From the NCBI GenBank assembly GCA_029204225.1, contig CM055111.1, forward strand, positions 47,421,224 to 47,485,223: a stretch of DNA of 64,000 nt, in the 5' to 3' direction. The notes under the pieces were generated by a model. It saw only the letters and a list, made by a program, of their open reading frames with translations. It made no database searches and had not been told where the DNA came from. This DNA is from Diphasiastrum complanatum. Lineage: Eukaryota; Streptophyta; Lycopodiopsida; Lycopodiales; Lycopodiaceae. The translations under genes were made by a program, and so were the position numbers. Shown piece by piece: positions 9,231-61,937 of the stretch (its first letter is position 1; each line of letters opens with the position of its first letter).

Positions 9231-9820
9231 TCATCCAAGCACAGATTGTTGGTTGCTCCGTCCATGAGACACATTATTTGAGCCTCCCAATTATGCCGTC
9301 AATTTTTGGTTGTATTGCTATTTGTATTGTGCTTCAGTGTAATATAGCAGCAGCACATTTTTATTTGTGTACAACGTAGATGAATGCTTGTTGTGATTGA
9401 ATGCACTTTCATTGTTGTTTGATCGCGCTTGTTTACTCACTCTAATAAGAACATGGACGTCTACAACTCCTCAGTTTCTGATCAGACGATGGCTGTTTTT
9501 GATGTCTGAGAAACTCGCGATATCATACTGCTCTTCCATTTATTTCAGAACTATACTTCACATTGAATCTGATTTCAGTAGTACCACACACAAACCATCT
9601 CTAATCTCTTCGATGGACTGTACTCTTGTTTTAGAGTATGAATTAATTTTTAAAATCCTGTTGGGTACTCAGAACGCATAAAGCTGTGATTATCTTTAGC
9701 ATAAGTTGTCTATTAGACTGGTTTTTCACCTAGCAGCCGATTAGAATGGGAGAGCTATTCCACAATATTTCTGCTCTCTTTTCCGTTCTTGTTCTTCCTA
9801 TCTCCCTTGCCCCATCAGAT

Positions 9821-12060: not shown

Positions 12061-12072
12061 TGGTATCAGATC
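12061..12072 (+). other. Element B primer-binding site
   Basis: TGGTATCAGATC directly follows the LTR. It is initiator tRNA-Met type with one mismatch from TGGTATCAGAGC. Confidence 0.85.
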
Positions 12073-12816
12073 TTGATAGGAGAATACACATCTGATCATT
12101 GCTTTGTCAAATGGAATGACTTCTCATCATTGTTGGTGAAATTTTGCCTCTTATTGGCACTCGATTTTGAGCTAACTAGATCCAATCTCATCATCACTTA
12201 TTAATGTATCTTTTTATCTGATTTCAAAGCTGTACGGCCTACTGTAGTAGCACGTGTGAGGCCTCTAATCAAGATAGAGTGGGGGCTATGTTACTTCTCA
12301 TTTTTTCCATCCATGTTGCATATGAATGGAAAGCTAATCAAGTGTAGATTGTGATGCAAGTGACCTCAAGAGGATTGGTGGATTCTAAGGAGAGTTCTTG
12401 GCATTCAAAGTGAGGCATATTGAAGAAGAAAAATAGAGTTTTACATGCTTGAAGGATGTACTATCAAAGATCCTTTATTGTAGGAGTCAAAATAGCAAAT
12501 TTTGACTATTTTTCAATTTTCTTCAATCTAAGAAGCATTGTTTGGATCTATGATCCTATGAATGGATGAAACTTTCTAAATGATAAATCTGACTTTTTTA
12601 AGCTATTTCACACGTGTGAACTTAGATTTACTTCATCCACTTTTGCTTTGAAAAATAAAGTGCAAATTTTGACTAGCACCTAGAAATTGTAATTTTTGGC
12701 CTTCTTTGAGTTCTCAATCATTTGTTACTTGATTCCAAGTGATCATTAGTCTACATTTGATTAGCTTTGAACCTCTGAACACATTCATTTAGTAAGCCAA
12801 AATCAATTCTCTAGGC
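12073..12816 (+). other. Element B untranslated leader
   Basis: Between primer site and gag start. AT-rich, with no frame of interest. Confidence 0.6.
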
Positions 12817-13551
12817 ATGACTTCAATGGGATCTTATCAAAGTGAGAGACTCACTTCTACAAATTATGGTACATGGAAAGTGAGGATAGAATCCATTCTT
12901 GTACTTCAAGATCTAATAGATATAGTGAAACAGAATGAGGAGGAGCCTACTAATCCTCAAGAAATTTCCAAATTCAAGAAAAGAGCACGTGTTGCTCTTC
13001 ATGTTTTAAAGCTAAATGTCTCTGATGAAGTTCTAAGAGAGATTAGTTCTTGTGTTAATGCTCAAGAAGCATGGAGTACTCTTCAATCCATTTATGAGTC
13101 TAAAAACACTTCAAGAGTCCTTACTCTAGGAAATATGATTTTTCAAAGTTTTCAAAGAAAGGATGAAAGTGCTTCATCCTATGTTTCTAGAGTCAAGGAT
13201 CTCCATAAAGATCTTTGTTGCATAGATGATTCTATCAAATCTAAATAAATTGTTCAAGTTATTTTGAATGGATTAATTGAGGATTTTGATATTATTGTTC
13301 AATCTTATGCAATCAAAGATGACTTACCCTCTTTAGAAGCCTTACAAGGAGTCCTGATAGCCGAGGAGCATAGGCATCAAACTCAAATGCAAGATTTGAG
13401 AGATTGTCTCTCAAGGATGGAGGAAGTGATCAAGCACTCTTCACCAAATCCAAGGAGAAGAGAAAAGACAAGAAGAATGGCAAGAGCTCCAAGGACAACA
13501 CAAAATCAATTTAGAAGACATCTGAGGAGGAACCAAGCTCATCCAAATTGA
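12817..13551 (+). pseudogene. Element B gag (one stop, one frameshift)
   Basis: Starts MTSMGSYQSERLTSTNYGTW, a typical copia gag opening, and continues through a UBN2-like gag domain (LTLGNMIFQSFQRKDE). A TAA at 13246-13248 interrupts it, and the same frame resumes as IVQVILNGLIEDF. Near 13435 the natural reading moves to the frame that reaches the lysine-rich linker and the CCHC knuckle (CFSCGKKGHFASQC, about 13575-13615), with another stop near 13510. Confidence 0.85.
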
Positions 13552-15038
13552 AGAAGAACAAGTACAAGGTTACTTGTTTCTCATGTGGCAAAAAGGGGCA
13601 TTTTGCCTCCCAATGCTACAAAAGGAAAAAACAAGCCAACATCACTTGTGAAGATGAATCTCCTTGTGACAAAGAAGATTCACTTATGATGTCTAACTTT
13701 TCATCTTTCTCTTTCAAGCATTCTAATGTATGGTGGCTAGATAGTGGTGCCTCATCCCACATGAGTAGTGATAAAAACTCTTTTTGTAATCTTGTACCAT
13801 ACAAAGGATCTAGAAGCTGTATCTGTACAGCAAATGATGAGGAATGTATGATAGAAGGCATAGGAAGCATATCTCTAGATAAGCTTGATCTCAATGATGT
13901 GCTCTATGTTCCTAGTTTGACTAAAAATCTAATAAGTGTAGGCCAACTCAATGATGATGGTCTACAAGTAGACTTTAAAGATGGTACTTGCTTGATCACA
14001 AAAGATGATGATATAATAGCATCATGTTCTCGTTTTGGATGGTTATTCAAGCTTGATGGAAATGGAAATGCTAATCTTTGCTCGGATATTGTGCTACAAG
14101 GAAAGCTTTCAAATGAAGATCTATGGCATAGGAGGTTGGGCCATCCCAACTCCAAGGCCATGCAATCTATGTGCAAGTTGGAGCTAGCTCATGGTTTGCC
14201 TAAGTCCATAATCAAGGAGCCAAGTCCTTGTGATGCATGTGCATTGGCCAAATCACATGCAAGGCCACATCAAAGATCAACCATCAAGTCCAGAGCACCT
14301 TTGAAACTCATCCATAGTGACATCCATTTCTCATCCACCCAGAGCAAGGGTGGAGCTACATGTTTTATAACATTTATTGATGATTACTCATGTTTTTGTT
14401 GGGTTTACCTCTTATCTTCTAAAGCACTTGCATATGAAGCTTTTGTGAAGTTCAAAGCTTTTGTTGAGAATCAACTATCTTGTAAAATTAAAGCCTTGAG
14501 AAGTGATAATGGAGGTGAATACATCTCCACAAAGTTCATAAACTTTTGTGATGATTTTGGCATTAGAAGAGATTTCACTTGTTCATACTCTCCTCAATCT
14601 AATGGAGTGGCCAAAAGAAAAAATAGAACTCTATGTGAATGTGCAAAGGCACTTAGACTAGGAGCCTCTCGTTCTAAAGATTATTGGGGAGAAGCCATAG
14701 GATGTGCTAATTATCTTTGCAATTTTTTGCCAAATCATGCTATAGAAGATATTGCACCTTATGAAAAGTTCATTGGAAGGAAACCCGAGGTCAATCATCT
14801 TAGAACATTTGGATGTGTATGTTTTGTACATGTACCTCTTGAAACAAGAAAAAAAGAAGATGCTAATGCTCTTAAAGACATTATGATAGGCTACTCAAGT
14901 AAAGCCTATAGGATTTTTGTTCCATCTACTAATCAAACTATGATAAGTAGAGATGTGATCTTCCATGAAGATCGAATGTACATGAAGGACAATGTGCAGG
15001 AATCTCAAGAGCTTATTCATCAAGGAGGAGTCTCTTAA
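13548..15038 (+). CDS. Element B pol part 1: zinc knuckle, protease, integrase
   Basis: An uninterrupted frame of 496 codons. Residues about 10-23 are the CX2CX4HX4C knuckle. WWLDSGASSHMS at about 62-73 carries the aspartic protease DSG. DLWHRRLGHPNSK at about 191-203 is the GAG pre-integrase domain. The integrase core follows with IHSDIHFSS, FIDDYSCFCWVYL and SDNGGEY (catalytic D and D), then PQSNGVAKRKNRTL with the catalytic glutamate position changed in the usual GVAERKNRT word. The copia integrase C-terminal word SRDVIFHE is near residue 467. The frame starts at the knuckle because gag upstream is out of frame. It would normally be one polyprotein with gag and RT. Confidence 0.88.
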   Translation: MKKNKYKVTCFSCGKKGHFASQCYKRKKQANITCEDESPCDKEDSLMMSNFSSFSFKHSNVWWLDSGASSHMSSDKNSFCNLVPYKGSRSCICTANDEECMIEGIGSISLDKLDLNDVLYVPSLTKNLISVGQLNDDGLQVDFKDGTCLITKDDDIIASCSRFGWLFKLDGNGNANLCSDIVLQGKLSNEDLWHRRLGHPNSKAMQSMCKLELAHGLPKSIIKEPSPCDACALAKSHARPHQRSTIKSRAPLKLIHSDIHFSSTQSKGGATCFITFIDDYSCFCWVYLLSSKALAYEAFVKFKAFVENQLSCKIKALRSDNGGEYISTKFINFCDDFGIRRDFTCSYSPQSNGVAKRKNRTLCECAKALRLGASRSKDYWGEAIGCANYLCNFLPNHAIEDIAPYEKFIGRKPEVNHLRTFGCVCFVHVPLETRKKEDANALKDIMIGYSSKAYRIFVPSTNQTMISRDVIFHEDRMYMKDNVQESQELIHQGGVS

Positions 15039-15232
15039 TCAAGTATTGATCAAGATGAAGACCTGTTGGGGCCAAGATCACAAGAGAAGCCGAGTCTACC
15101 AATGACTCCAAGAAGGTCAACCTGAGAGAGATCTGAGCCTAGAAGACTCACCTACTTGGGAAAAGGCAAACAAGTGGAGGATTCAAGTTCTCTACATGCT
15201 TTTCACACACTTCCATTGAAGAACCATCAAGT

Positions 15233-16752
15233 GTGGAGGAAGCTCTTCAATCAAAGGATTGGATCAAAGCTATGGAGGCCGAGTATGAAGCTTTGATGCA
15301 AAATGAGACTTGGCAACTTGTAGATCCACCTAATGACAAGCATGTCATTGGATGCAAGTGGGTCTATAGAATCAAGCTCAATAATGATGAATCAATCAAT
15401 AAGTTCAAAGTAAGGCTTTGTGCTAAAGGCTATGCCCAAATCAAAGGCATAGATTATGAAGAAACCTTTGCTCTCGTAGCAAAGATGGTAACCATTAAAA
15501 GTCTCATTACTTTTATGATTGGAAAATGCTTCAACTTGATGTTTCCAATCCTTTCTTAAATGGTTACTTAGAAGAAGAAATATATATACATCAACCTCCA
15601 AGTTTTGTTGAGAAGGGAAAAGGATCAAAAGTATGCTTACTTTTGAAAAGTCTTTATGGCTTGAAACAAGCTCCAAGGGCTTGGTATGAGAGGTTGAACA
15701 CTTATCTTCTTTCTATTGGTTTCAAGATTAGTTCATATGATCCATAATTATATCTTAAACATGTTGGTAATGATATAATCATGTTGCTTATTTATGTTGA
15801 TGACATTCTATTATGTGGAAGCAACATGGATTTACTTGTTGATACCAGGATCTCCTTAGGAAAAGAATTCAAAATGCAAGATCTTGGATTTTTACATCAT
15901 GTACTTGGATTAGAGATCAAGAACTCTAATGACTTAGCTTTCATTTCTCAAGAAAGTTATGTAAGATCTATGCTTAAGAAGTTTAAAATGCAAGATTGTA
16001 AAAGCATAGATACTCCTATGGAGTCTAATGTTAAAGACACTAAAATTTGTGATGAAGCATCCTTTGAGGACATCACACTTTTTAAAAGTCTAGTAGGCTC
16101 TTTAATATGGCTCACTATCACTAGGGTTGATCTCAGTTTTAGTGTGCATAAGCTTAGTCAAAGCATACAAAATCCAAAGATCCATGATTGAAAAAAGGGG
16201 AAGAGGATTTTGAGATATGTTGCATCTACTCAAGACTATGGACTTTGTTTTAAAAGACATGATTTAAGCCTTGTTGCCTTTTTATATTCGAATTTTGCAG
16301 GTGATAAGGTGGATAGAAAGTCCACAAGTGCTTACACAATATTTTTTGGAGGTAGTCTTGTCTCTTGGAAATCTAAGATGCAAGACACTATCTCCTTATC
16401 CTCATGTGAAGCCGAGTACAAGGCTTTGACTATCACAACAAAGGAAGTCATTTGGATCAAAAGATTACTAGTGGAGCTCGGGATCATTCAAGAGGAGGAA
16501 ATACCTTGCATCAAATGTGATAGCATCTCGGCCCAATATCTTGCAAGTAATCCAATCTTCCATGCAAGAAGTAAACACATAGAGTTAGCACACCAGTATG
16601 TAAGAGAAAAAGTTATGGATGGTGAAATTCTCCTTGAGCATGTATCAACTTCAAATTGTTATGCAGATTTACTCACCATGCCTCTAGCCAAGAAGGACTT
16701 TGAAAGACATAGATCAAATCTTGGCTTGATCTCCAAGTCCTTAGTATTGTAA
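15233..16752 (+). pseudogene. Element B pol part 2: reverse transcriptase and RNase H (broken)
   Basis: Pieces at 15233-15559, 15526-15747, 15781-16191 and 16210-16752 together give a copia RT. WVYRIKLNNDESINKFK and KGYAQIKGIDYEETFA come first, then [32 protein letters not shown] and the catalytic YVDDILLCGSN. RNase H follows with CEAEYKALT and SKHIELAHQYVREK. Breaks are a frameshift near 15530 and stops near 15745 and 16190. The linker 15039-15232 is also shifted. Confidence 0.88.
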
Positions 16753-16774
16753 ATATTATTTTTATTTTGAGGAG

Positions 16775-17321
16775 TGTGAAAATATTGTAAAATTAAAATA
16801 ATATTAAACTTAGAGATTCAAGTTTTGGGGTTTGTCCAAACTTGAGGTAGACTAGTCTAGTAACTTTCCAATTAGAGTCAAGTTAGATTTTAGTCTTCAT
16901 AGTGATGTGTAGGTCTAGAACCTATCAATAAGCATTTGAGGCTACTCTTGTACGTCAAAGGATTCTCAAAAAGAGAGATTTTCAAGTCTTATCCATTTCT
17001 CTTTTTGTCATCTAGTAGAGAGGTAGAGGCAATGTGGCATCTAGATTGTTCTCTCTCTCCACGAGTTCTAGAAGGCCTCTTGTATTATAAATAAGGTGGC
17101 TTTGTACCACAAGATTACACTTCTTCAAGTAAAGCTTCCATTTGATCCATTTGAGGTGTAATGATAGTTAGATTGTGATGAATGCTCTTGCCTTCATGCT
17201 AACTAGCTTGCCAATGTTTTCCATCTCATTGTTTTTGGAATAGAAGCTAGTTTAGTGTGCAATCATTCATTCTCTTGATCCTTTGTACTTGCAGCTAGTT
17301 CACATGTGTGAAAAGTTCTCA
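16775..17321 (+). mobile_element. Element B 3' LTR
   Basis: Begins TGTGAAAATATTG directly after a short purine-rich tract (TTTTGAGGAG) and ends AAAAGTTCTCA. Confidence 0.92.
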
Positions 17322-17677: not shown

Positions 17678-17939
17678 TGTCAAGAATTAGATTTGCAACA
17701 TCAAGCATTCACCATAAGCAATCACCAAAAGAAGACGGAAGAAGAACACGCACTGTCACTCTATCACACTAACACATACAGAATGTAAAATGTACAAATA
17801 AACCCTGAACCCTGATAGAGAGAGAAAACCTACGAGTAGACTAATAGACTAGCCTACGACTATTGACAACTGGTCACAACTGTCAACATTAATGTGCATC
17901 GTAAACAGTAACAATGAAGTTTATCATTGATTTCTAACA
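17678..17939 (-). mobile_element. Element C 3' LTR
   Basis: On the minus strand it begins TGTTAGAAATC after the purine tract ATTGAGGGAGAG and ends TTCTTGACA. Confidence 0.9.
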
Positions 17940-19643
17940 CTCTCCCTCAATGATAAAATTACATTTTTCAATCCCTAATAGAGTATGAAACCTCTCGAAT
18001 TTACATCTACCTAATGACTTAGTAAAAATATCTGCCATTTGATCTTCAGATTTACAAAAAACAAGATCAATGGCTCCATCAAGAATTTTCTCTCGAACAA
18101 AAATGGTAGTGTATTTCGATGTGCTTGATTTGAGCATGTAAAACTGGATTTTTGGCAAGGTCAATGCAACTTTGATTATCGCAAGATATAGTAGTCGCAT
18201 CCACCTATGGTTGACCTGAATCCACAAGCAATCTTCGTAACCATACCTCTTCTTGTGTAGCATTGTTGAGTGCTCGATATTCAGCTTCTGTCGATGATAA
18301 GACTACTATAGGTTGCTTTTTGCTGCTCCATGAAATTGCAGCTGTACCATAACTGAATGTATGACCACTAGTAGATCTTCTGTCATCAATATTACCTGCC
18401 CAATCGGCATCTGTATAACCTACCAACATTGGCACTTCAGGCTGATCATACTTCAAACGAAAATTCACTGTCCCTCGAATGTATCTGAGAATACGTTTAG
18501 CAGACTTCCAGTGTGCTTGACTAGGATCTTGCATAAATTGACTAACAACACCAACAGCATAAAAAATATCAGGTCACATGTGTGTCAAATAAATCAAACT
18601 ACCCACCAGTTGTCTATACAAATAAGCATCCACTTTCTCATATTCATCATATGTAGTAAGCTTTATGTTGACATCCATAGGTGTACTCAAAGGCTTACAA
18701 TCCTGCATATTGAACTTATAAAGCAAATCTCGTGCATATTTGCTTTGTGTAAGAAATACCATGTTTTCCTTTCGCCATACTTCAATGCCAAGACAATAGT
18801 GCATCAATCCCAGATCACTCATGTCAAAAGCTTTGGAAAGATCTGATTTAATGTCATCAATTAAGCTCTCATTACTTCCTGTAATAATCAAATCATCCAC
18901 GTACAACACAATGAACATTATATCTGAATCTTGCCTTAGAATGTAAAGATTAGGATCAGCATCACTCTTTATCATTCCCCTTCACTTGAAGTGTTCATCA
19001 ATGCAAGAATACCACGCCCGTGGTGCTTGCTTCAATCCATAAATGGCTTTGTTGAGCTTACAAACGAGATGCTCTCTCCCTGGCTCAACAAATCCTTGAG
19101 GTTGTACTAAGTACACCTCTTCATCCAGCACTCCATTAAGAAAAGCAGATTTAACGTCCATTTGCTGGATCTTCCAACATAGAAAGCAGAAATAGCAATG
19201 ATAGAACGTATAGTTACCATCTTAGCTACGGGTGCGAAGGTCTCTTCAAAATCAATACCTTCCTACTGCTCAAATCCTCTCGCAACCAACCGTGCTTTGT
19301 ACTTGTTGAGTTGCCCATCAGCTCCATATTTGATCTTGTATATCCATTTGCAAGTGATAGGCGTCTTACCATCAGGTAGCTCAACCAAGTTCCACATCCT
19401 ATTCTTCGATATAGCTTCCATTTATATTTCCATAGCTTCATGCCACTCCTTGTGCTCCTTTGCTTTATCAAAAGTTTTTGGTTCTTGAGCCTTGGGCACA
19501 GAACCCATTAGGGCTAGATTCATCTCTAATCTTGCAGGAGGTTTTCGATTTCTACTTGATCTTCTAAGCTCTCCCTGCTCACTTGATTCGGGAGTATTTC
19601 CCTTATTAGCATCACTTGTTACTGACAAGTACCACTTAGGCAC
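17940..19643 (-). pseudogene. Element C reverse transcriptase and RNase H (broken)
   Basis: On the minus strand: linker RRSSRNRKPPARL near 19560, then CKWIYKIKYGADGQLNKYKA and [32 protein letters not shown]-type catalytic word near 18900 (seen as IVLYVDDLIITGSN), KFNMQDCKPLSTPMD, and LVGSLIYLTHM. RNase H follows with YTDADWAGNIDDRRSTSGH and SSTEAEYRALN, then REKILDGAIDLVFCKSEDQM. The RT palm is interrupted by stops or frame changes near 18980-19230 and 18570. A full-length copia RT-RNase H would be continuous. Confidence 0.88.
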
Positions 19644-21463: not shown

Positions 21464-21727
21464 TGCCAAGAATTAAATATGCAACATCAAGCATTCACCA
21501 TAAGCAATCACCAAAAGAAGACGGAAGAAGAACACGCACTGTCACTCTATCACACTAACACATACAGAATGTAAAATGTACAAATAAATCCTGAACCCTG
21601 ATAGAGAGAGAAAAAACCTACGAGTAGACTGATAGACTAGCCTACGGCTATTGACAGCTGGCCACAGCTGTCAACATTAATGTGCATCGTAAACAGTAAC
21701 AATGAAGTTTATTATTGATTTCTAACA
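21464..21727 (-). mobile_element. Element C 5' LTR
   Basis: On the minus strand TGTTAGAAATCAATAA to AATTCTTGGCA, 264 bp. Confidence 0.9.
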
Positions 21728-22577
21728 CCATCAATAAACGATGCTATGTCATTTCATCCTATTTTACGTAGCATGGATTCTTCCAACGTTGATGTTTCTT
21801 CTATAGAACCTACAGCTACAGCTATAGAAGCTGAGCAGCCGACAGTACCTGTCATCAGACCAGACCAAGCTAGCTCGAGCAGATCTGGAGAAATTCAAGA
21901 AGAAGCATCATCGCATTCTGGTCAACCAAACGTCCGTAGATCCTCACGGACGCGGACAGTTCCTGAGAGGTATGCACCTCAATCATTCTGGACTTCATCA
22001 GAAGAACCAGAAAGCCTAGCCAAAGCAATTAACTCCAAGGATGCTGTGGTGGCAAGAAGCTATGGAAAACTCACTTTTGACGAATCAGACCTGGACACTG
22101 GTCGACTTTCTTACTCACAAGAGAGTTATTGACAACAAGTGGATCTTCAAGAAAAAGATCAACTCTGATGGTTTCATTGCTAAATGGAAAGCACAGCTTG
22201 TGGCTAAAGGATACACTCAAGTCCAATGAGTGGATTATCAAAAAAATTTCAGTCCTATCATCAAGATGCAGTCAATCAGGACTCTAATTGCGTTAGCAAC
22301 CGCGGAAGACCTCAAAATGCACCGAATGGATGTCAAGACAACATTTCTCAATGGCAATGTCGAAGAGGAGCTGTACACCTTCCAACCGAAAGGATTCGAA
22401 GTCAAAGGCCAAGAGCACAAAGTGTGCAAGCTGCACAAAGCAATCTACAGTCTGAAACAGGCCGCAAGATCATGGTTCGATAGAATCAACTCTTATCTCA
22501 TTCAATTGGGATTTGCAAACAGTTCAACTGACTGTAATGTTTATTCAAAGCATATAGGCACCAATTCAGTTCACCTT
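21728..22577 (+). pseudogene. Element A reverse transcriptase N-terminal half (truncated)
   Basis: Contains the linker NVRRSSRTRTVPERYAPQSF, then in a shifted frame ENSLLTNQTWTLVDF and DNKWIFKKKINSDGFIAKWK, LVAKGYTQVQ, a stop, FSPIIKMQSIRTLIALATAE, MDVKTTFLNGNVEEELY and KQAARSWFDRINSYL. The copy ends at YSKHIGTNS, before the YVDD catalytic word, where it joins the 3' LTR. The rest of RT and all RNase H are deleted. Confidence 0.88.
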
Positions 22578-23710
22578 GCAGGAATCACAAACTTAGACAA
22601 CCAATTTACTTGAAGAGCGTTCACGACGGGCTTCTAGCTGATCTCCAGCAAAGGGTAACCAATCCCATTATAATTTTAAGTTCAGATGTTGAGTTTAATA
22701 ACTTGAAGTCATTGAAGACTTGGCCATCTTCAAAGACTTCCACAAAACTTGCATTTAGAACAAGTCTGCAGATTTACATTGTTTTTTGAGACAGTCTGCA
22801 GAAATGAACTATGTTCAAGATAGCTTCGCAAAAGTTTCACGACAGTCCAAAAGTTCAACTATTTTAATACCTTCGACTTTGTTCAAAAATTCCCAAATGT
22901 CATCTATTTTCATGTTGAACTATTTTTAACGACACCTTCGCCTTTTTAAAGGCACCTTTGCCTTTTTCGCAAAATCTCGAAGAGAGAGAAAAATGTTGAA
23001 GGTCATCTACTTTGAACGAGGAACGTTCCCAGCCACTTCCCAAATTTGCGAACTGAGAGAAAGCCACTTTCCTTATAAAGCGAAGTGAGAGAATTTGCAA
23101 CGCTCTCGTCCACGTCAACATTCCCTATGGGTTGATAGTATACACTGTACAGTTGTCACAAAAGCCATATACTTCCAGGTACAACAGCTTACCTAATTAG
23201 GTGACAGTCATTTATTGTAGTTAATACATGAATGAAATCTATAAATAGATCATCCGAGCACAGATTGTTAGTTTCTCCATCCATGAGACGCATTATTTGA
23301 GCCTCCCAATTATGCCGTCAATTTTTTGTTGTAATTGCTATTTGTATTGTGCTTCAATGTAATATAGCAGCAGCACGTTTTTATCTATCTACAACGACGC
23401 CTGAGGAACTCGCGATATAATACTGCTCTTCCATTTATTTCAGAACTATACTTCACATTGAATCTGATTTCAGTAGTACCACACACAAACCATCTCTAAT
23501 CTCTTCGGTGACTGTACTCTTGTTTTTAGAGTATGAATTAATTTTTAAGATCCTGTTGGGCACTCAGAAGCATAAAGCTATGATTATCTTTAGCATAAGT
23601 TGTCTATTAGACTGGTTTTGCACCTAGCAGCCGATTAGAACAGGAGAGCTGTTCCGCAGTATTCCTGTTCTCTCTCTGTTCTCATTCTTCCTATCTCCCT
23701 TGCCCCATCA
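22578..23710 (+). mobile_element. Element A 3' LTR (5' truncated)
   Basis: Aligns with 8422-9817 from about position 8542 onward (GCARGAATyACAAACTTAGACAA) and ends CTTGCCCCATCA. It is followed by the AGTAA duplication. A further internal gap is present near 23395 (the segment corresponding to 9380-9500 is shortened). Confidence 0.9.
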
Positions 23711-29460: not shown

Positions 29461-30065
<605 letters not shown>

Positions 30066-34268: not shown

Positions 34269-35843
34269 ATGATGAATAAGGTTATGGCAGCTGATGATGC
34301 AGCAAATGAGAAGGCTTTCACTGGAGAATCCGGCACAGCATCAGGTATGCCCTCTGACGGGGGGGAGAGTCATGAGATACAGGATGTACAGGTTGATGCA
34401 GAACCCAGTTTGAAGGCAGGTGATGAGGTCTATTGTAGTCAATCTGTGAAAGAAGAAGCATTGCCTGGGATTGCTGTGGATGATGATGATGATGATGAAG
34501 CAGGAAATATCAGTAAATTGGAAGAAGCCGACTCGCCCAAAGCCGAACCTGTTTTGCTTAGAATGCATGACATAGACTTCGCCAAAGAAGTCCAAGGCAC
34601 AATTCTGTCTGAAACGCATGTTCTAAACTGCGCTGAAGACTTCCAAGGTCCAATTCTGCCAGAGGTGCATGATATAAACTCTGCCAACGAAGTCAAAGGC
34701 TCAGTTCCGCCCGAAATGCTTGATTTAAACTTTGCCAGCAAAGTCGAAGACCCAATTTTGCCTGAAATGCATGACATAAACTCTTCCGACAAAGTTGAAA
34801 GCCTAATTCCACCTGAATTGCATGGCATGAACTCTGTTAACGAAGTCGAAGGGTCATTTCTGCCTGTAACGCATGATGTAAACTCTGTTGACGAAGTAGA
34901 TGGCCCAATTCTGCCTGAAATGCATGATGTAAACTCTGCTGATGGATATGTCGGGATGAGTGATACAGACATAGAAGTTGAGATCAATGAGGTTTTATCA
35001 TCAAATGATGGCAATATACTGTCAAAAAATAGTCCCTTTGATCATGAAGATGATAGGGCTTCCTGTTTTGATGGTGAAAAGTTATTTTTAAGCTGCCCTG
35101 AAAGTGCCGGGGATATTGAAAATGGCTCTGACGTTGATCATGCAGAATTTGGAGATGAAGATGCTGCAGAAGTGTTAGAAAATTGGGCAGTTCAAGATGA
35201 TGTATTTATTGACTCAGAAACCATCATAGACAGCGTACCTTTGACAGATACGCTTCCGACTTCAGTAAAAGAAGGCATTCGTAAACCTAGCGTTAACATT
35301 GAAAAAGACAATTCTGATATTTATCTCACAAGTGAGACAAAATGTGAGAGTGAAGATGCAGTGAAAGATGAATCTGTTCGCATAGAATTCTCTGAATCAA
35401 ACCTTCCTTGTGCTGATACGATAGAAGCTCATGCTGGCTTTACAAAGACTTGTTCAAGTGAAAATTTAAAGTTCACTGAAGATGCTCCAAATTCAAAAAA
35501 GAATAACAGTAGCAAAATGGAAGGAGATGTATCCACCAGTGAGAATTTTTTACCCGGAATGGAATACTGTAGGACTGATGCAAGTGTCACGGCAGCAGAA
35601 ATAAGTGAGGTGAAGCTGGATAACAGTCAAGAGTTCCTGTCAGAAGGCAGCGATTTGCAAATGAATTCTGATTGCAGTTTGGATGGTACGACTGAAACTA
35701 AGATCCAGTTGGCACTCCATAATTTGGATCACCCATCTTCTAGGGATATTCACAATAGTGAAAAGATTGCATCAAGGGTACAATATTCAACTAATGTGAG
35801 CAAGAAGCGGATTGACCTGGGCCATCAACTCGTGCGAGAAATC
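34269..35843 (+). CDS. Exon 1 of the unrecognised gene
   Basis: 525 codons, ending ...HQLVREI before GTAAGT. It is highly acidic, with a run of six aspartates near residue 71. The open frame continues only seven codons past the donor, which supports the splice. Confidence 0.75.
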
Positions 35844-38800
35844 GTAAGTTTTTGTCAACTATGATCTGCTGGAGCATTTGTGAGTCAGCTTGTGAAACAT
35901 CTAGCATGGAGCTTCTATTATATAGACATCTCCATCATAAAGTGATGCATCTAAATTCTTCTTTGCATAGTCACGACAAACTTTGATCCGAGATGTTTAA
36001 AACCTTCCTAGAATCTTTTGATTTGAATGCTTGCTTAAATCCTAGACAGAATCTGAAACTTGTTATTATAAGTTTTCTCATGTAGCCATAGTAGCAACCA
36101 AACTCATTTCAAGCCCGTTGAGTTTCAAACACGTTTGAACTTTGAAATAGCTTTTGTTATATTGGAAAACAAAACCCATTTACACCTATTTGTGCCTTGT
36201 CACCTATTTGCAAGATACCATAAGGTTGTGCATGTTCCTATGCTCCTTAATGTAGTCTTTTTTGTATAACAAATAATGAGCAATTTTTTCTACAAAATAT
36301 AGAAAAAATTCAATTTACTGAAAGCCCTAAAATTGAAAGAAGCTTTTAAATGTTTGGTTGATTTTTCCAAATGTTTCAAACGTTTCAAACTTGAAACGAT
36401 TGGTTGCTACCATGCATGTAGCAATCAATGCCGTATTTTTGGAAGCTAGGGAATGTTTGAGAGGTGAAATTAACGTGATCTATGTAAAAGAGTCATCCTT
36501 GAAGATGTGTATTCTTGGCTGCACTTTCTCTTGGATAACTTGCATATTTCTCTAGGTGATTCTCTTTGTCAACAAACAATAGGTTTTCCCATGGGTACTA
36601 ATTGTGCTGTTCATCTAGCTAACTTTTATCTTTTCTCTTATGAATATGAATATATACAAAGATTAGTTTCTTGTGGTACTTGTCCCATCTTATTGCATAA
36701 ATGAACTCATGTTAGAAGATATATTGATGACCTATTTGTTCCTGATCTTCCTAATTTTGGTAGTTTTCTATATAAAGACCCTAAAGTTTTTGGTGGAGGA
36801 ATCTCTCCTAAAGACTCACGTGATCTTAATTGAACAACTAGTGATGATAAGTGCAATTTTTTAGACCTGTCTATAAGCCAGGCTAGGTCAGGTTTTTTGG
36901 TTGATGTTTTTGATAAAAGGCTGCAGCCAGAATAAGGTAACTCGAACATGATTCACATGCCTCATATTTCTTCAAATATTTCGGATTCTGTTAAATATGG
37001 AGTGATCACTTCTCAAATCTACATGTTTTCTCGTCTTTGTACTAGTAGAGATGCTTTTTGTAGACCAGTGAATTATGATCTTTATCATTATTTTTTCTTT
37101 CTTCTTACTAGTTGTCTTTTGCTTCTTAGTCAACACTGGGTCTACCCAACAGAATCCGGATTCTTTCAAAGCCCAGTTAACAACTTATGCTTGGGTACTG
37201 ATGAGAAGACATAAGCAATGCTGTTTGGCTAAGAGTTTTTGTTTATTGAATTTTATATTTTTGTTGTGACTTAGATCCTTTGACTTTTTGAGTTGCTTGT
37301 ATATTGTTAATGTTTACTTCGTTCATGATATTATTCATCATAACTTTTTCTTTGAAAGAAACTTTATTTGCACTTTGTAACATAGATCTAGCGGTACCAG
37401 GATCCGCAAATCCCGGTACCGCGGATCCACACTGGTACCGCGGATCCATACTGATCCGCGGTACCATAATATATTAAATTTTTTTAATATTAATATTTAA
37501 TATTTTTTTTTAAATATATATATATATATTTTTTATTGTATTCTAGTGGGCAATATGGGTATCAGCTTGAAGCTGTTAACGAGAGCAATCCATTTCAAGG
37601 TAAATTTATAGCTAAAACAATATCTTTTGGCTTTTTTTGGGCAGATACAGCACTAAATAATATTAGGAAAAAATATTAAAAAAAATAAAAAAATAATATA
37701 TTGTGGTACCACAATATGTACTATACTCAAAACCTTTTGGATATTGAGCTTCTGCATGAAAAGAAATCTTTCGGGTTGTTAGATGTATCATGTAGTATTG
37801 ACCATCAGCATTCACAAAATCAGGTAAAGATCCAACATGATAGAGAGCAATATGAAAGGCAGTGCCAAGTTTCTAAGCAGGAAAGTCAAAATCGCTGGAA
37901 GCTGGAAAAGGTGAGGTCCTTTTCTTTGTATCAAATCACTGTATTAATAAGATAGTGTGGTCCTTGCGTATTATCAGGAAACATCTGTTTCAAGGTAAAA
38001 CCAGTAATAAGTCTTGTTTAACGGATTCAAATCATGAGGCTCTTGTACTTTAGTGAATGCTACTGAAGCTGTGAAGCATATTTCCAGGCATAGTCGCTAC
38101 AGGGTGCTAAGTTGCTTTTGCTTTATGTCTGCCTTTACCTCCATTATGTGAGCATTAGTTCTCTGATGTCCTTGTATCTATGAATTTTAGGGATTGTTAA
38201 TGCACAAGTCTGCATGAAGTTAAAAGTTCTTCAGATCTGACTAGGCTCGAAAATCAGCAAAATTTTGATTAGGTTGAAGGTTTTAGAGAACTCCTATTCA
38301 AAGTATACACCAAATGGGAATACTTTCATTTCTCGTCTCTTCTCCTTTATTCATCTCCAAGTGCTCGTCGGTCTCCGTTTGACTGCAAACTTGCTTTACA
38401 TTTTCTCCTCAATCTTTTGGTTTCCCCAATGTCACCATGCTTGCTTTTTGAAATTATCACTCAATACTACTACCTATCTGGCACCATTTGGTACTTAACA
38501 ATATGTTGCCGTATGTACAGAATGTGTTAAAAATTGTAATGAAACGAATTTGCCTATAAAATCCCCGAACTCCACTCATCTGAAAAAGGCTGCCAGTAGC
38601 AAGAGGAGAGGGGTGGTTGGAGATATTAGTTGTGGTTCCATTTGAGTGAAACGACTTCACATCGAGGGTTTTATCCTCATGCAGAGTACAATAGTAGGTT
38701 TTTTACTATCGCTAGTTTCAGTTTTGTGTTTTTTTTCTGCATGGTAGTTTTTCAATGTTTTTACTTGTTTTAGGGAAACTAATGATGGAGACATCATTTT

Positions 38801-41800
38801 TGGGCAGTAGGCATCATTTATCACCTCCCCAGTAGTGTTAGTACGTCCATTGTTGGTTTTAGCTCATGTGTTTTGTTCTTTTGCTTAAATTAGGCCTTTT
38901 CTAGGGTTTAGGCCATACGGGAGTGTGTTAGGGTGGTGTTTACGGCACGTCCCGGAACCCTAATGGGATTCCGGATCACGCTCCGGAATGCGCAACTTTG
39001 GCCCCCCAATCTTTGGGGCTGGGTTTTTACATAACGTTGGCCCATATTTTAGGTTTTTTGCATACTGTAGGCTCATTTTTAGTATTACCGTGCATGCTAT
39101 CATCAATATGTTTAGAGCTTGAAGAGGAAAAGGCAAAAAGGACCACCCTAAAATTTATTATTTTCCGTAAATACCTCTCATTTGTACCCTATATGCTACC
39201 TGCTGGTCTTTATTCAAATTTGAGGTTTTTTTTGGTGACGGATTTGTTGGTCTAAGGCTTTGTGTGAGACTCCTTTGTTATATCTTTCACTATTCTAATG
39301 AATTGGTGACAAGGATGTTGTGACATCTTAATCATCAATGTAGTCCATTCAAATTGTGGAATCCAGTGTTGCATATGATGATGCTTTAAATACTGTTTTG
39401 CAGAACGTTGAACACAAATGTCAGAGCCAAGTCTAGGTTAACTTTTATACATTTTTAGCACATCTGAGCCAGATGCAGCATAAACAAACAGGTGCATAAA
39501 TCCTATTGAGGGTTACGCATTTAAAATTGTCTTCTCAGAGTATCATTAGACTGCCTTTGTTTGAAACTTAGTTGCCCGTTCCGGAACGGAACGCGTTCTG
39601 GAACGTGTGTTCTGTTCCGGAAGTTGGCCAAATTTTTTTTAGATTAAGGAATGCAATCAAGATATATAGCGTGGCTGAGAAAGCGATTCTAGCTCGGATA
39701 TAGATAATGTGGTTTTTAACAAAGCAATGGAGATTAAGGAATGGTCAGAGTAGTATGTCCGAATATAAGGAGGACAGGATGTCGAAGCTACAAGATGTTC
39801 CAACCAAGGATCAGCAAGACAACAAGCGTCGTGATACTGCAGAAAAACGTAGTAATCAGATAACCACGGTCTCCTACTGGAAGCTCTTCCGTTATGCAGA
39901 TTTGCTTGATGTGACGGTAATGGTGGTAGGGGCAGTAGCAGCAGTGGTTAATGGATTCGTATTCCCAGCAATGTTCAGGCCCATGTCATCCACGGGTTTG
40001 AGACTCTCCGGAACGATCCCTCCAAGCTTACAGAGACGATGCATCTCAAATATAGCGATTCTAGGATCAACGTGTTTGTTAAAATAGCGATTCTAGGATC
40101 GTGTTTGGTAAAATTGATTTCTTTGTTAAAAATTACACATCATTGATTTCAAAACAATGATTTCAAATCGATTTCTGATCCGTAGCGTCCCTCAATGCTG
40201 TTTTTTTTTTCTCTAAAAAAACGTTCCGACCCAAAATGGTCGGAACGGGCTTCTAAGGTTTGAAAAGAAAACCTTCTAGATGTGGTCTTACTTTTTCAGT
40301 GAAGCTTTAGAATTGTTGGCCCCATTTTGTAGGCAGGATATATAGTAACTAATCAAAGTTGCATGTTCCGTTCTGGAACGTGTTCCAGAACATTAACTTT
40401 TTTTGTCTGTTTTTTCAAAAGCTGCCAATATGGGTATCTTGTGAAAGGATTTCAAAAGAGCAGTGCTGTTGCTTGGTTTCAGATGTTTAACCCCCAATAT
40501 CCATTATTCACTTCAATCAGATACTGAAGCAAATGAACATCAGATACTGAAGCAAATTGTTTTTGCAGATATATTCATTAACTATTCATTTCAATTTTAT
40601 CTGCTTCAGTATTTTTGCTATTTATTTGGATCGCAACCAGCGGTGGATCCCTGCCCAATGAGAAAAAATTGCAAATTTTTTGGCGATCCAGGACAGCGTT
40701 TCTGGCCCCAGATCGCAGGCGATCTGGATCGTTTTTGCAACGGATTGCGATCCGCTGCAATTCAGTACTAGTTTTCAAATGACATGCTTGGAATTGCATT
40801 TATCATTTTGCAATCAGTTTATGAACTGAGATTTGGTTAATTTTCGGTTTTTTTTCAGTTTGAGAAAGACAAAGACAAGTGCCATATCTTTTGTCCAAAT
40901 TCAATTAATAAACTCAAAATAGTGTTCACCTTGGGTACACTCCATCAAAAGAAAAGCGGGGGCAAATTGTTTTATTTCACAGAATATTTGCCTGTATAAC
41001 CTGTACAAACTGACATCAGTCATAGGCAGATCCGTAGGTGTAGTGGAGGTAGGGGAAAAGGGGGAGCTCTTATTCCCAAAAATATCATGCTGTAACTGCG
41101 CTGTACCAGCAATCTGCTGCTACAGCAGCTGTTACAGCGCAACAGCTGCTGTAGCAGAATGTTTCTGCTGCTGCGTTGGATCAGGAGATGCAGTAGCGAA
41201 CTGCTGCTGCATCGCTGCTGTTGCAGCGATCTCAGCCACCGTTGCAGCCATGGGAGTAGAGGAGGACGGGACAGGAGGGGGCCAGCCACAGCCCCCACTT
41301 TCTTTCTCGGCATGGAGGTGCTAGGGAATGGAGTGATGGAGCAGCGCTAGAGCATACTTTTTCTTCCAAATGTAAACTAGTTGCTTCACATTTACCTTAT
41401 AGGCTTTATATATTTGCTGCTTTTGTTTCTTGTGTTTTCTAAAATAATTCCTTCACATTCACATTAAAGGTCTTATATATTTGCTGCTTTTGTCTTGCAG
41501 GTCGATAGGGTAGGCAAAAAGGATGAGACTGAGCTTGAAAAAGGAATGGGACGTGAAGTTTTGCCACAAGAAGCTGCGCGGAATGGGATGAATGGGTCAT
41601 TTCACCGAGCAGTCAATGAGGAAGGATACATGTCTATGGAGAAATCTGTGCCAGCTATGAGAAGAGGAGATGTCTCTCAAGCCTCCCAGTCAGGATCAAA
41701 GGCAAGCAGGTACTTTGATAAAGCAGAGTCTGAGTATGGGAAGGATAGATGGGCTGGAAAAGATCTGTTGAGCGATGAAGGTATGCGTGTAAAAGATAGG

Positions 41801-44068
41801 CAGCTTTCCAATAGAAGACATACTTTTGTTGATGTACAACAAGAAGCAGTGTCGAAGGGTGGTACGCGCTATGATAATTCTACACCAGCGCATACTGGAA
41901 GAGATATAAATCACCGACAGAATACTCAAGGAGCTAGAAGAGATAGATTTGTGTATGATGCACCGTTATCAAGTAGAGCAAGCAACAAACTTGGTAGTAC
42001 AAAGGAAGCTGTTCAAGGACAGCTCTTAAATACTGAACGTGTGCAGCCAAGAACTGTGGGAGAAGCTATGAACCAGGGACACTTGTATTCAGTTACCGGA
42101 GAAACATCTCACAGTGATGTGAGAAAATTGGCAGTTCGAGGAGAGCTGCAGTTCCAAAAAGTAAGACTTGGAACAGGGAAAGTCTTTGAAAGTCGAGATC
42201 AACTAGTCAGAAAAGACGATGTAGCCCTAAAAGCGAGCTTAAGGCATTCAGACAAGCTTCAAAACAAAGATCAAACTCTTCACAGCAGGGAAGAGAAAAT
42301 GGGAAGGATTGGGATTGACAATCAGCTTAGGTTTGGACCTGTCTATCGACCTCCAAGTGCACGAACACCAAGGTTGCCAATCTCAGAAACACCAAGCCCA
42401 CAACAAGCACAAAAACCAAGCCCGCAACAAGCACAAACACCAAACCCACCAACATCACAAAATGAGACGACTTATTATTTTGATGAGTTGGATGCCGAGG
42501 TGGGATCTCAGGAAAATTTTCAGCCTGGTGCAAGTACTTCAAGAATCTCCTTATCTAATGCAAACCCTTTTCAGAGGAAAGGAACGTTTGAAGGAAGAAA
42601 CGCTTCACAGGTTGCAGGTTCTCCATGGAAAGATGCCAGCTTTGAAAATACGGAGTCACAGTCAGCAAGAGTTTTCTTTGAGAAGAGCGATATTCATGGA
42701 ACTGGAACATCTAATAATGCAGACTCTACTCCTCCAAGATGGGTTAATCCTCAGTTAGGAAAAGAAGTACCTGTGATGCCCGTGTCAAAGTCGAATTTTG
42801 ACGCTGGGAGACAGAATAGATACATTGATTCACCTATGACAAATGCAATCAAACTCGAAGCTGAAAATATCGAGAAATTTGTGGTGAATTTTGACACTCA
42901 AAAACAGAAAAGGCGGATTGGATATTTGAACTTAAATAGAGAAGATGGTGCGCAGAAAAGTTTGAGCAACTTTTCCGGTGCTTCTTCAGGCAATGGGCCT
43001 TCAGAGCAGCAAGAGGATCTTTCCAAGAAATCAGGTTACTATCACAGTGGAAAGCAAACAGGAGCCAAAGATCTTGCAGGAAAAGTTCACAGTACCAATC
43101 TTGTAGCTTCTGGAAGTTCTGCCCAGCCATATCAATCTCAAGCTGCCTCTGGTGATGAGCATCCTAGCAACACCACCCAGAAGGCAAGGTTACTGGGTGG
43201 GTCCGCGAAGAGCAAAGATAGAAGGCATTTCAGCAACAATTTAAGGGAAGATACTTATAGTCCCAAAGGGGCTCCTACTCAAGATTCTGTATATAGCGAT
43301 ATCCCTGATCCTTCAGCATTCAAATCTTCTCTGGAGTTGAGTATTTCTGGCTTTAGGAACAAAGAGAATGCAACAAGGATAATTGAGGCAAATAACAACT
43401 ACGAAGTAACTGGGGTGGCCACACATGACGAGTTTGAAGAAAGTTGGAGCTCACCATCTTTTCCCATTAACTCTTTGCCTAAAGTAAAGAGCGCGGAAGG
43501 TGTTTCTAGCAAGGCCTGGAGGTGGGGGGATGTGGTCGATGAAGCTGATGAAGCTGATGAAATGGAATTCGGTCCCTTGAAAATGAAGGCCGAGAACAAC
43601 TGGTCAGAAAAAGGACTGGCTGAATATGGTGGCAGGGTAGACACAATTACATCATCCCTTCCCAATGCAGCACAACAGCAGAAGAATTTTGTTGAGCACA
43701 GCCATCATATGGAAAGCAGGACAGTTGTCAAAGATGCTCCAAACAACATTGCTATCTTGGGTCAAACTTCAGCCAAGAAGAGTGTCTGGGAACGACTTGG
43801 GCCTCGCGAAGCTGCAACTGACAGATTGGACAAAACAAAATCTGCTGGTGATGGCCTTGTAATGAAGCCACCATATAGAAGCTCAAATTTTGATAGATCA
43901 CATACAGGCAACACATCACGTGGTAGGCAAGACACCCATTTCAGCGAATTCAACACTTTCCCGATTAACACTGGTGAAGCAGAACTGGTGCAAACATACA
44001 AAGATGAGAAGCAGAAGCGTGGCAAACTTGAATTGTATGTGCCTCGTCGAAGTTCACATAATTTTTGA
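34269..44068 (+). CDS. Unrecognised plant gene, four-exon model, about 1434 residues
   Basis: Exons 34269-35843, 37566-37599, 37783-37910 and 41501-44068 join in phase (0, 1, 0) with GT-AG ends: GTAAGT, GTAAAT and GTGAGG donors, and the last acceptor TGTCTTGCAG. I do not recognise the protein. The first 525 residues are very acidic and include a 17-residue tandem repeat. The last 855 are rich in S, K, R, N and Q and look disordered. They include a proline/glutamine patch (PSPQQAQ repeats), AWRWGDVVDEADEADEMEFG, KKSVWERLG and a basic end KRGKLELYVPRRSSHNF. Such composition suits a nuclear or RNA-associated scaffold, but that is a guess. The two small exons are the weakest part; exon 2 could start at 37547. 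The start is the first of two ATGs in an open frame. Confidence 0.65.
34554..34949 (+). repeat. 51-bp coding minisatellite, about 7.7 copies
   Basis: Residues 96-227 are 17-residue units of consensus LPEMHDINSxxEVEGPI, with each copy diverged at several positions. Wholly in frame, so it expands the protein without breaking it. Confidence 0.9.
36430..37095 (+). pseudogene. Second Penelope-like reverse transcriptase relic, in intron 1
   Basis: In shifting frames: LHFLLDNLHISLGDSLCQQ and IGFPMGTNCAVHLANFYLF (about 36580-36640), then HVRRYIDDLFVPDLPNFGSF (about 36708-36765), CNFLDLSIS (about 36850) and SNISDSVKYGVITSQIYMFS (about 36970-37030). This is the Penelope-type order: GxPMG, RYIDD, FLDL, then K-G-I-T-Q. 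Different in sequence from the relic at 25655-27165, so the window samples two lineages. No GIY-YIG domain is visible. Confidence 0.75.
37391..37465. repeat. Palindromic-word island 1 (GGTACCGCGGATCC)
   Basis: GGTACCGCGGATCC at 37415-37428 and 37434-37447, its inverted form GATCCGCGGTACC at 37453-37465, and GCGGTACCAGGATCCGC at 37391-37407. Set in very AT-rich DNA. Confidence 0.85.
37566..37599 (+). CDS. Exon 2 of the unrecognised gene (tentative)
   Basis: Chosen because the acceptor after ATCAG restores phase 0 from exon 1 and the donor AAG/GTAAAT is good. The better-looking acceptor at 37547 (TTCTAG) would break the frame unless exon 1 ends elsewhere. Confidence 0.4.
37697..37716. repeat. 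20-bp perfect palindrome
   Basis: ATATTGTGGTACCACAATAT, sharing the GGTACC core of island 1, about 230 bp from it. Confidence 0.9.
37783..37910 (+). CDS. Exon 3 of the unrecognised gene (tentative)
   Basis: The acceptor TTGTTAG gives the right phase after exon 2. It encodes a hydrophilic stretch (QHDREQYERQCQVSKQESQ) ending KLEK before GTGAGG. Confidence 0.5.
38951..38992. repeat. Palindromic-word island 2 (TTCCGG/CCGGAA)
   Basis: CCCGGAACCC, GGGATTCCGG and CTCCGGAATG fold into an imperfect stem within 42 bases. Confidence 0.6.
39573..39621. repeat. Palindromic-word island 3 (GTTCCGGAACG)
   Basis: CGTTCCGGAACGGAACGCG, TTCTGGAACG and TGTTCCGG in both orientations. Related words recur at 40222-40250 (CGTTCCGACC, GGTCGGAACGG) and 40367-40392 (GTTCCGTTCTGGAACGTGTTCC). 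Confidence 0.8.
39753..39988 (+). pseudogene. Captured first-exon fragment of an ABCB-type transporter
   Basis: Reads MSEYKEDRMSKLQDVP to SYWKLFRYADLLDVTVMVVG then AAVVNGFVFPAM. This is the N-terminal lead-in and first membrane segment of plant P-glycoprotein-type (ABCB) transporters, which run to about 1250 residues. Only about 75 residues are present. Just after it, from 39989, another frame reads AHVIHGFETLRNDPSK, possibly a second captured piece. There are no further ABCB domains, so it is not a functional gene. It lies between inverted repeats. Confidence 0.6.
40628..40762. repeat. Palindromic-word island 4 (GCGATCC/GGATCGC)
   Basis: GGCGATCCAGGACAG, CAGATCGCAGGCGATCTGG, GGATCG and TTGCGATCCGC pack several inverted copies into 135 bases. 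Confidence 0.75.
41090..41245. repeat. Palindromic-word island 5 (CAGCAGCTGCTG)
   Basis: CTGCTGCTACAGCAGCTGTTAC, CAACAGCTGCTGTAGCAG and CTGCTGCTGCATCGCTGCTG in both orientations. Open frames here (poly-S/C/A) are low-complexity artefacts. Confidence 0.75.
41501..44068 (+). CDS. Exon 4 (last) of the unrecognised gene
   Basis: 855 codons plus TGA from acceptor TGTCTTGCAG. Begins VDRVGKKDETELEK. Unbroken over 2.57 kb while neighbouring DNA is full of stops, which supports coding. Hydrophilic throughout, without a membrane segment. Confidence 0.8.
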   Translation, partial: VDRVGKKDETELEKGMGREVLPQEAARNGMNGSFHRAVNEEGYMSMEKSVPAMRRGDVSQASQSGSKASRYFDKAESEYGKDRWAGKDLLSDEGMRVKDRQLSNRRHTFVDVQQEAVSKGGTRYDNSTPAHTGRDINHRQNTQGARRDRFVYDAPLSSRASNKLGSTKEAVQGQLLNTERVQPRTVGEAMNQGHLYSVTGETSHSDVRKLAVRGELQFQKVRLGTGKVFESRDQLVRKDDVALKASLRHSDKLQNKDQTLHSREEKMGRIGIDNQLRFGPVYRPPSARTPRLPISETPSPQQAQKPSPQQAQTPNPPTSQNETTYYFDELDAEVGSQENFQPGASTSRISLSNANPFQRKGTFEGRNASQVAGSPWKDASFENTESQSARVFFEKSDIHGTGTSNNADSTPPRWVNPQLGKEVPVMPVSKSNFDAGRQNRYIDSPMTNAIKLEAENIEKFVVNFDTQKQKRRIGYLNLNREDGAQKSLSNFSGASSGNGPSEQQEDLSKKSGYYHSGKQTGAKDLAGKVHSTNLVASGSSAQPYQSQAASGDEHPSNTTQKARLLGGSAKSKDRRHFSNNLREDTYSPKGAPTQDSVYSDIPDPSAFKSSLELSISGFRNKENATRIIEANNNYEVTGVATHDEFEESWSSPSFPINSLPKVKSAEGVSSKAWRWGDVVDEADEADEMEFGPLKMKAENNWSEKGLAEYGGRVDTITSSLPNAAQQQKNFVEHSHHMESRTVVKDAPNNIAILGQTSAKKSVWERLGPREAATDRLDKTKSAGDGLVMKPPYRSSNFDRSHTGNTSRGRQDTHFSEFNTFPINTGEAELVQTYKDEKQKRGKLELYVPRRSSHNF

Positions 44069-51501: not shown

Positions 51502-52256
<755 letters not shown>

Positions 52257-54920: not shown

Positions 54921-61560
<6,640 letters not shown>

Positions 61561-61607
61561 AATTAGAACATTTGTTATTGGAGCGTGAAGATGTAGACAG
61601 CCTATGA

Positions 61608-61730
61608 AGAATCCCATGTAAAACTGCAGTGTCGGGTTTTCGCCTGTGTAGAAACCCGTGTAAAACTGCAGTGTCGGGTATTTTGCCTGTGTAGAAACCC
61701 GTGTAAAACTGTAGTGTCAGGTTTTTCACT
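61608..61730. repeat. 42-43-bp tandem repeat in the element F LTR
   Basis: Nearly three units of AGAAACCCGTGTAAAACTGC, AGTGTCGGGT, TTTNGCCTGTGT. Confidence 0.9.
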
Positions 61731-61937
61731 TTTTTCCCAAGGCAAAAATTACATGAAAAAATGCATTGTCGCATTTTTCACTTTTTGTCGCTTGTCAGAA
61801 ATGGTGAGAAAAAATACAGACTGTAGCGACAATTAGACCAAAAATGCAAATTTTTTGAAAAATGGTTCATTTTCTGCAGGTTCATTAGAGAGAGTAAAAC
61901 TGAAAGAAGAAAGGAGGGTAGTTAGGATGAGTAGGAG

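What the first reader, a model, noticed from the sequence alone, without database searches (positions are those of the whole stretch)
37391..41245. Five intron islands, each built from its own reiterated palindromic word
Within 4 kb the introns of one gene hold islands of GGTACCGCGGATCC, TTCCGGAA, GTTCCGGAACG, GCGATCC and CAGCAGCTGCTG, each repeated in both orientations within 40-160 bases and set in AT-rich DNA. CACTA and hAT transposons have subterminal arrays of short inverted words bound by their transposase, so these may be ends of several related but unnamed small elements, each with a different word.
Basis: inference. Interest (0 to 1): 0.7.

Follow-up and report, generated by a model that had tools for sequence, protein, structure and literature searches.

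The report
Transposon ends with family-specific repeated words
Short repeated palindromic "words" in this gene's introns are best read as the end regions of small jumping genes; one is complete and seems to carry a broken piece of a transporter gene, which is a known kind of thing.

Summary
The islands are real. In a scan of all 64 kb for GC-rich inverted word pairs, four of the seven top regions, including the top three, lie at 37.3-41.3 kb (scores 27, 20, 12, 10; maximum of 2,000 shuffled windows 6).

Island 3 is explained: it is the left end of a complete 691-bp element (39567-40257) with a perfect 8-bp target duplication, GTTTGAAA, and inverted ends matching at 15 of 17 bases. Inside is what looks like a broken ABCB-transporter exon fragment, so this is a Pack-hAT-like element. 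These are the only two at that score in 64 kb; 40 shuffled windows gave none.

Islands 1, 4 and 5 share the architecture, but no convincing ends were found; they are inferred to be decayed ends. The decisive genome-wide copy search did not complete (11 tries). Verdict: new members of a known kind, of modest interest.

The parts
36079..36086 (.). Target-site duplication CATGTAGC, left of MITE
36087..36414 (.). Complete 328-bp hAT-type MITE; inverted ends CATRGTAGCAACCAA; word GTTTCAAA/GTTTGAAA near both ends
36415..36422 (.). Target-site duplication CATGTAGC, right of MITE
37391..37465 (.). Island 1: GGWWCCGC, 7 exact copies in both orientations; no element ends found
38952..38991 (.). Island 2 (weak): TCCGGA twice
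39559..39566 (.). Target-site duplication GTTTGAAA, left of 691-bp element
39567..40257 (.). Complete 691-bp hAT-type, Pack-like element; inverted ends CTTAGnnGCCCGTTCCG, 15 of 17 identical
39576..39621 (.). Island 3: left subterminal array of CGTTCC/GGAACG (TTCCGGAA)
39842..39976 (+). Part of the broken ABCB (P-glycoprotein) N-terminal exon fragment that matches PDB chains; by eye the fragment spans about 39740-40046
   Evidence: summed E 7.9e-09; no Pfam ABC match
40222..40247 (.). Right subterminal copies: CGTTCCGACC..GGTCGGAACG hairpin
40258..40265 (.). Target-site duplication GTTTGAAA, right of 691-bp element
40365..40390 (.). Island 3c: more copies of the island 3 word type; no element ends found
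40628..40756 (.). Island 4: GGATCGC/GCGATCC, 3 of 5 copies in the window; no element ends found
41089..41248 (.). Island 5: GCTGCTG/CAGCAGC (5 of 10 copies in the window) and GCTGTWAC words; no element ends found

Best explanation
The islands are subterminal binding-site arrays of small non-autonomous cut-and-paste transposons, mostly hAT-type, that have accumulated in and just upstream of one large intron. Each family carries its own short word, repeated in both orientations near its ends. By analogy with characterised hAT elements, a family-specific transposase encoded elsewhere would bind these words, pair the ends, cut at the terminal repeats and insert with an 8-bp staggered cut. Shown: island 3 is the end of a complete element (39567-40257), and a neighbouring MITE (36087-36414) has the same architecture with another word. 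Well supported but not certain: the cargo of the first is a broken ABCB exon fragment. Inferred: islands 1, 4 and 5 are ends of older or truncated elements; the words are transposase sites; the ABCB piece was captured from a host gene.
For: Scan for a perfect 8-bp duplication plus inverted ends matching at 11 or more of 14: 2 elements in the window, scores 13 and 12, both in or beside the island cluster; 40 shuffled windows gave 0.275 per window at score 11 and none at 12 or more. With one mismatch allowed in the duplication, still only these two reach 12, and none with 9-bp duplications. 6 of the window's 20 GGAACG/CGTTCC copies lie in 100 bp of the 691-bp element's ends, and 8 of 42 overlapping GTTTSAA-type hits in 160 bp of the MITE's ends. 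The MITE's inner ends share 10 informative 7-mers (1 of 5,000 shuffles as many). In print: Herves hAT transposase binds CG/AATTCAT repeated at both ends, and Ac, Tol2 and Tag1 transposases bind short repeats (PMC3143072, passages); hAT elements of grapevine have 8-23 bp inverted ends and 8-bp duplications (PMC2528002, passages).
Against: Four of the five listed islands (1, 2, 4, 5) have no convincing inverted ends with duplications. Inside the terminal repeats, the ends of the 691-bp element share only 4 informative 7-mers (94 of 5,000 shuffles as many), and 2 of the 4 are A-rich rather than the island's word. Its first bases CTTAG lack the A at position 2 of the usual hAT start (recalled). 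The ABCB call rests on two short stretches summed; the best single stretch has i-Evalue 0.0019, Pfam gave no ABC family, and the next piece had no PDB match. No transposase in the 10 of 21 long open frames scanned. No copy elsewhere could be sought. Word-enrichment figures are post hoc, since the words were taken from the islands.
Confidence: 0.77

Rival explanations
1. Only island 3 and the MITE are transposons; islands 1, 4 and 5 are self-standing palindromic or hairpin sequences grown by local duplication and inversion, not element ends.
For: No inverted ends with duplications for islands 1, 4 and 5. The six stretches folded (islands 1, 3 left, 3 right, 3c, 4, 5) fold better than shuffles, z from -2.8 to -8.5. 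Island 1 has a 19-bp unit repeated 2.5 times.
Against: Two proven elements with the same word architecture lie in the same 5 kb; the islands carry different words, as separate transposon families would. Strong folding follows from any inverted-word array and is no separate evidence.
Confidence: 0.15
2. The islands are clusters of transcription-factor sites, for example heat-shock elements in island 3 (TTCnnGAA), acting as intronic enhancers.
For: TTCYRGAA occurs 5 times in 39579-40390, of 11 in the window.
Against: The only canonical three-unit heat-shock site in the window is at 8867, not in any island. Island 3 is bounded by a transposon end, and the words differ between islands.
Confidence: 0.04
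3. Chance or compositional noise in a large intron.
For: Island 2 is below the threshold; island 3 does not exceed the looser shuffles, where three regions outside the listed islands also exceed them.
Against: Islands 1, 5, 3 and 4 exceed all 2,000 shuffles, and an end-plus-duplication score of 12 or more was never reached in 40 shuffled windows.
Confidence: 0.03

Closest known systems
hAT transposons (Herves, Ac, Tol2, Tag1) and hAT MITEs
   Same: 8-bp target duplication, short inverted ends (PMC2528002 passages), short words repeated near the ends (PMC3143072 passages)
   Different: The words here are largely self-complementary and stand in both orientations; the 691-bp element starts CTTAG; no transposase seen in the window frames scanned
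Pack-hAT / Pack-TYPE elements (PMC8903248, passages)
   Same: Non-autonomous element with inverted ends and 8-bp duplication that carries a host gene fragment
   Different: One example only; the parent ABCB gene and further copies could not be sought
VANDAL elements and their VANC proteins (PMC5735166, passages)
   Same: Each family marked by its own short repeated motif in non-coding parts
   Different: Motifs described there as tandem and bound by an anti-silencing protein, not shown to be transposase sites; no such protein seen here

Membership tests
hAT superfamily: MITE 36087-36414 | 8-bp target-site duplication | tested here: met
   CATGTAGC on both sides
hAT superfamily: MITE 36087-36414 | Short inverted ends beginning YARNG (consensus recalled, from no call) | tested here: met
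   CATAG and CATGG; 13 of 14 identical
hAT superfamily: element 39567-40257 | 8-bp target-site duplication | tested here: met
   GTTTGAAA on both sides
hAT superfamily: element 39567-40257 | Inverted ends beginning YARNG (consensus recalled, from no call) | tested here: not met
   CTTAG at both ends: positions 1 and 5 fit, A at position 2 does not; so called hAT-type, not filed as a hAT member
hAT superfamily: both elements | Mobilised by a hAT transposase whose own element has matching ends | not testable with these tools
   The genome search unanswered in 11 of 11 tries; 10 of the 21 window frames of 150 or more codons scanned, no transposase
Pack-TYPE element: 39567-40257 | Inverted ends and duplication enclosing a host gene fragment, no transposase | tested here: inconclusive
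   Ends and duplication met. Cargo matches ABCB chains but weakly per stretch, and not in Pfam. No frame of 150 or more codons inside
Pack-TYPE element: 39567-40257 | Parent gene elsewhere in the genome | not testable with these tools
hAT, CACTA or other inverted-end element: islands 1, 2, 4, 5 | Inverted ends with target duplication around the island | tested here: not met
   no convincing pair
Heat-shock element: island 3 | Three alternating nGAAn units at 5-bp spacing (definition recalled) | tested here: not met
   only match in the window at 8867

The most novel reading that the evidence does not exclude
One genome hosts several hAT-type families that have diverged mainly by switching to new palindromic words near their ends, each read by a dimeric transposase of matching specificity. 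The words would be family identity tags that change by co-evolution, comparable to VANC motifs in VANDALs, and this stretch is a record of about five such families (words of the MITE and of islands 1, 3, 4 and 5) side by side.
Probability: 0.2. Interest if true: 0.5.

Novelty: new member of a known kind. Interest (0 to 1): 0.33.

Why it matters
It suggests a sequence-only rule for spotting unannotated non-autonomous transposons: islands of one short word in both orientations point to element ends, which a duplication search can then confirm. It adds one probably gene-capturing element and one MITE, each with a defined word that could be used to find its transposase in the genome.

Tried and rejected
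Element ends for the other islands. Inverted ends with 3-10 bp duplications within 1.5 kb and with 2, 3, 8, 9 or 10 bp within 1.2 kb; 5, 6, 8, 9 and 10 bp in 35.5-44.5 kb; looser 8-bp duplications out to 3 kb. Candidates seen and not believed: 40416-41425 (3-bp TTT, 12/14; its right arm lies in the local duplication 41373-41493); 36218-37740 and 39504-40499 and 38562-41056 (3-bp only); 39317-39804 (7-bp, overlaps the better element); 39579-40378 (2-bp, only the shared word); 41164-43682 (8-bp with one mismatch, 10/12, right end inside the long coding frame) and 39621-42972 (6-bp, likewise in the frame); and several with 8/10 ends and two mismatches in the duplication.

Other leads. Heat-shock elements: no canonical site in the islands. 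Literature search for five words (two forms of the island 3 word, a variant of it, the island 1 14-mer and a 13-mer of island 5; the island 4 word was not searched): 24 papers, 23 listed, none about transposons by title and start of abstract. Rfam: no match at gathering score. Pattern CTTAGNNGCCCGTTCCG in viral contigs: 21 stretches, one match each, with only 1-2 GGAACG/CGTTCC copies within 60 bp, taken as chance. Empty-site translation of the MITE flanks: stops in all three frames, so it decides nothing. My first both-ends test counted poly-T words and was repeated without them, with a weaker result for the 691-bp element.

Full report
Setting. The window is eukaryotic and probably from a plant (inference): of 10 long open frames scanned out of 21 of at least 150 codons, 6 match copia-type retrotransposon families in Pfam at E 0.01, 4 of them above the curated cut-offs, and 4 have no match. 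No tool names the organism. The own-genome search did not complete in 11 tries, so what follows rests on the 64 kb and on the literature.

Observation. I scored inverted 7-mer pairs with at least 4 G or C in 160-bp windows over the 64 kb. Seven regions scored 6 or more; the maximum of 2,000 shuffled windows was 6. Islands 1, 5 and 3 rank first to third (27, 20, 12); island 4 ties for fourth with 381-640 (10 each); the others are 57821-57980 (8) and 61561-61780 (6). A looser 8-mer scan without the GC demand gave 21 regions of 5 or more, of which 6 exceed the maximum of 4,800 shuffles (8.5): three hold islands 1, 4/3c and 5, and three lie elsewhere (321-620, 12421-12720, 36961-37200). Island 3 (8.0) did not exceed it. 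So the GC-rich islands are more than chance and concentrated here, but not unique in kind. Island 1 is better written GGWWCCGC in both orientations; all 7 exact copies of the window lie in its 75 bp. The second island (38952-38991) is weak.

What island 3 is. A search for inverted ends with duplications around each island gave one clear case: CTTAGTTGCCCGTTCCG starting at 39567 and, on the other strand, CTTAGAAGCCCGTTCCG ending at 40257, 15 of 17 identical, with GTTTGAAA repeated directly outside. Over the window, elements of 60-3,000 bp with a perfect 8-bp duplication and at least 11 of 14 matching end bases number two, with scores 13 and 12; 40 shuffled windows gave 0.275 per window at 11 and none at 12 or more. 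With one mismatch allowed in the duplication, still only these two reach 12, and with 9-bp duplications none.

Both-ends test. Inside the terminal repeats, the two ends of the MITE share 10 informative 7-mers (1 of 5,000 shuffles as many). The ends of the 691-bp element share 4 (94 of 5,000 as many), two of them A-rich, so at its right end the word lies mostly in and next to the terminal repeat.

Cargo. An open frame in the 691-bp element (39704-40081) matches 35 distinct PDB sequences at E 0.01 or better, all ABCB-type transporters; best whole-sequence E 7.9e-09, residues 47-91, that is 39842-39976. This sums two stretches; the best single stretch has i-Evalue 0.0019. Pfam gave no ABC family for the frame, only Ycf1 at 0.19. 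The next piece, in another frame, looks by eye like the following ABCB residues but had no PDB match at E 10. I take it as a broken ABCB N-terminal exon fragment, probable rather than certain. AGCGATTCTAG lies to its left (39682) and twice to its right (40054, 40086), which would fit capture between short direct repeats; that is inference. Elements of this kind are known as Pack-hATs (PMC8903248, passages only).

The other islands. For islands 1, 2, 4 and 5 and the extra array 3c I found no convincing inverted ends with a duplication (candidates are listed under Tried and rejected). I read 1, 4 and 5 as ends of older, truncated or partly lost elements because of the shared word architecture, the GC contrast (islands 50-63%, flanks 21-45%) and the place. 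The chief rival is that they are self-standing hairpin sequences. Six stretches folded as single strands do better than shuffles (z -8.5, -4.2, -4.1, -2.8, -3.3, -4.6; at most 2 of 200 shuffles as good), but any inverted-word array would.

How it would work. The Herves hAT transposase binds CG/AATTCAT, repeated at both ends, and the authors state that Ac, Tol2 and Tag1 transposases bind short repeats, with different motifs at the two ends in Ac and Tol2 (PMC3143072, passages). Different words in different elements are then what separate transposases would give. Another case of family-specific motifs is VANDAL/VANC, where the bound protein counteracts silencing (PMC5735166, passages). Transposase binding to the words seen here is not shown. 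Heat-shock elements were considered for TTCnnGAA in island 3; the window's only canonical three-unit site is at 8867.

Membership. The MITE meets the two hAT features tested. The 691-bp element has the 8-bp duplication but starts CTTAG, without the A at position 2 of the recalled consensus YARNG, so I call it hAT-type and do not file it as a hAT member. Grapevine hATs are described with inverted ends of 8-23 bp and 8-bp duplications (PMC2528002, passages), which both elements fit. No transposase was seen in the 10 of 21 long frames scanned.

Gene context (inference). An exon-like stretch ends at 37910 with a GT donor at 37911; an AG acceptor ends at 41500; the two join in phase 0 to the open frame 41468-44065, of which 855 codons follow the acceptor. 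Islands 2-5 and the 691-bp element lie in that 3.6-kb intron. No Pfam family matched the protein. Island 1 lies upstream and may be intronic or 5' flanking.

Verdict. Observation partly confirmed, interpretation partly supported, new members of a known kind, modest interest.

Noticed in passing
36474-37211: Broken reverse-transcriptase-like frames (e.g. GFPMGTNCAVHLANFYL, RRYIDDLFVPD) that resemble Penelope-like retroelements by recollection; Pfam gave no match.
   Followed up: partly
11513-17321: Likely copia-type LTR retrotransposon: 548-bp direct repeats 97.3% identical, TG..CA ends, flanked by ACAAA/ACAGA, integrase frame 13515-15038.
   Followed up: partly
17678-17940 and 21464-21728: Second pair of direct repeats, 95.5% identical, possibly LTRs.
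   Followed up: no
40516-40612: Another, AT-rich word island beside island 4: ATCAGATACTGAAGCAAAT twice plus an inverted copy.
   Followed up: no
40052-40114: A 32-bp unit repeated about twice with GCGATTCTAGGATC, inside the 691-bp element; AGCGATTCTAG also lies left of the captured fragment.
   Followed up: no
37460-37483 and 37687-37710: Inverted arms, 88% complementary, each ending in GGTACC on the outside, 203 bp apart; they might bound a decayed element of island 1.
   Followed up: no
3270-3402, 3627-3736, 6341-6486, 29919-30062, 51986-52071, 56016-56091: Long period-2 arrays of about 50% GC that match each other perfectly at two-base offsets.
   Followed up: no
3-913, 8415-9817, 22577-23710: Copies of one repeat, 70-93% identical in pieces, the first in inverted orientation to the others; the first holds reiterated CTGCAGACTGTTGCGACACTTAGTG words.
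   Followed up: no
34538-34939: Diverged tandem repeat inside a 561-codon open frame with no Pfam match.
   Followed up: no
41373-41493: 54-bp direct duplication (85%) just before the splice acceptor ending at 41500.
   Followed up: no
12421-12720 and 36961-37200: Two more stretches with inverted 8-mer pairs above all shuffles in the looser scan.
   Followed up: no
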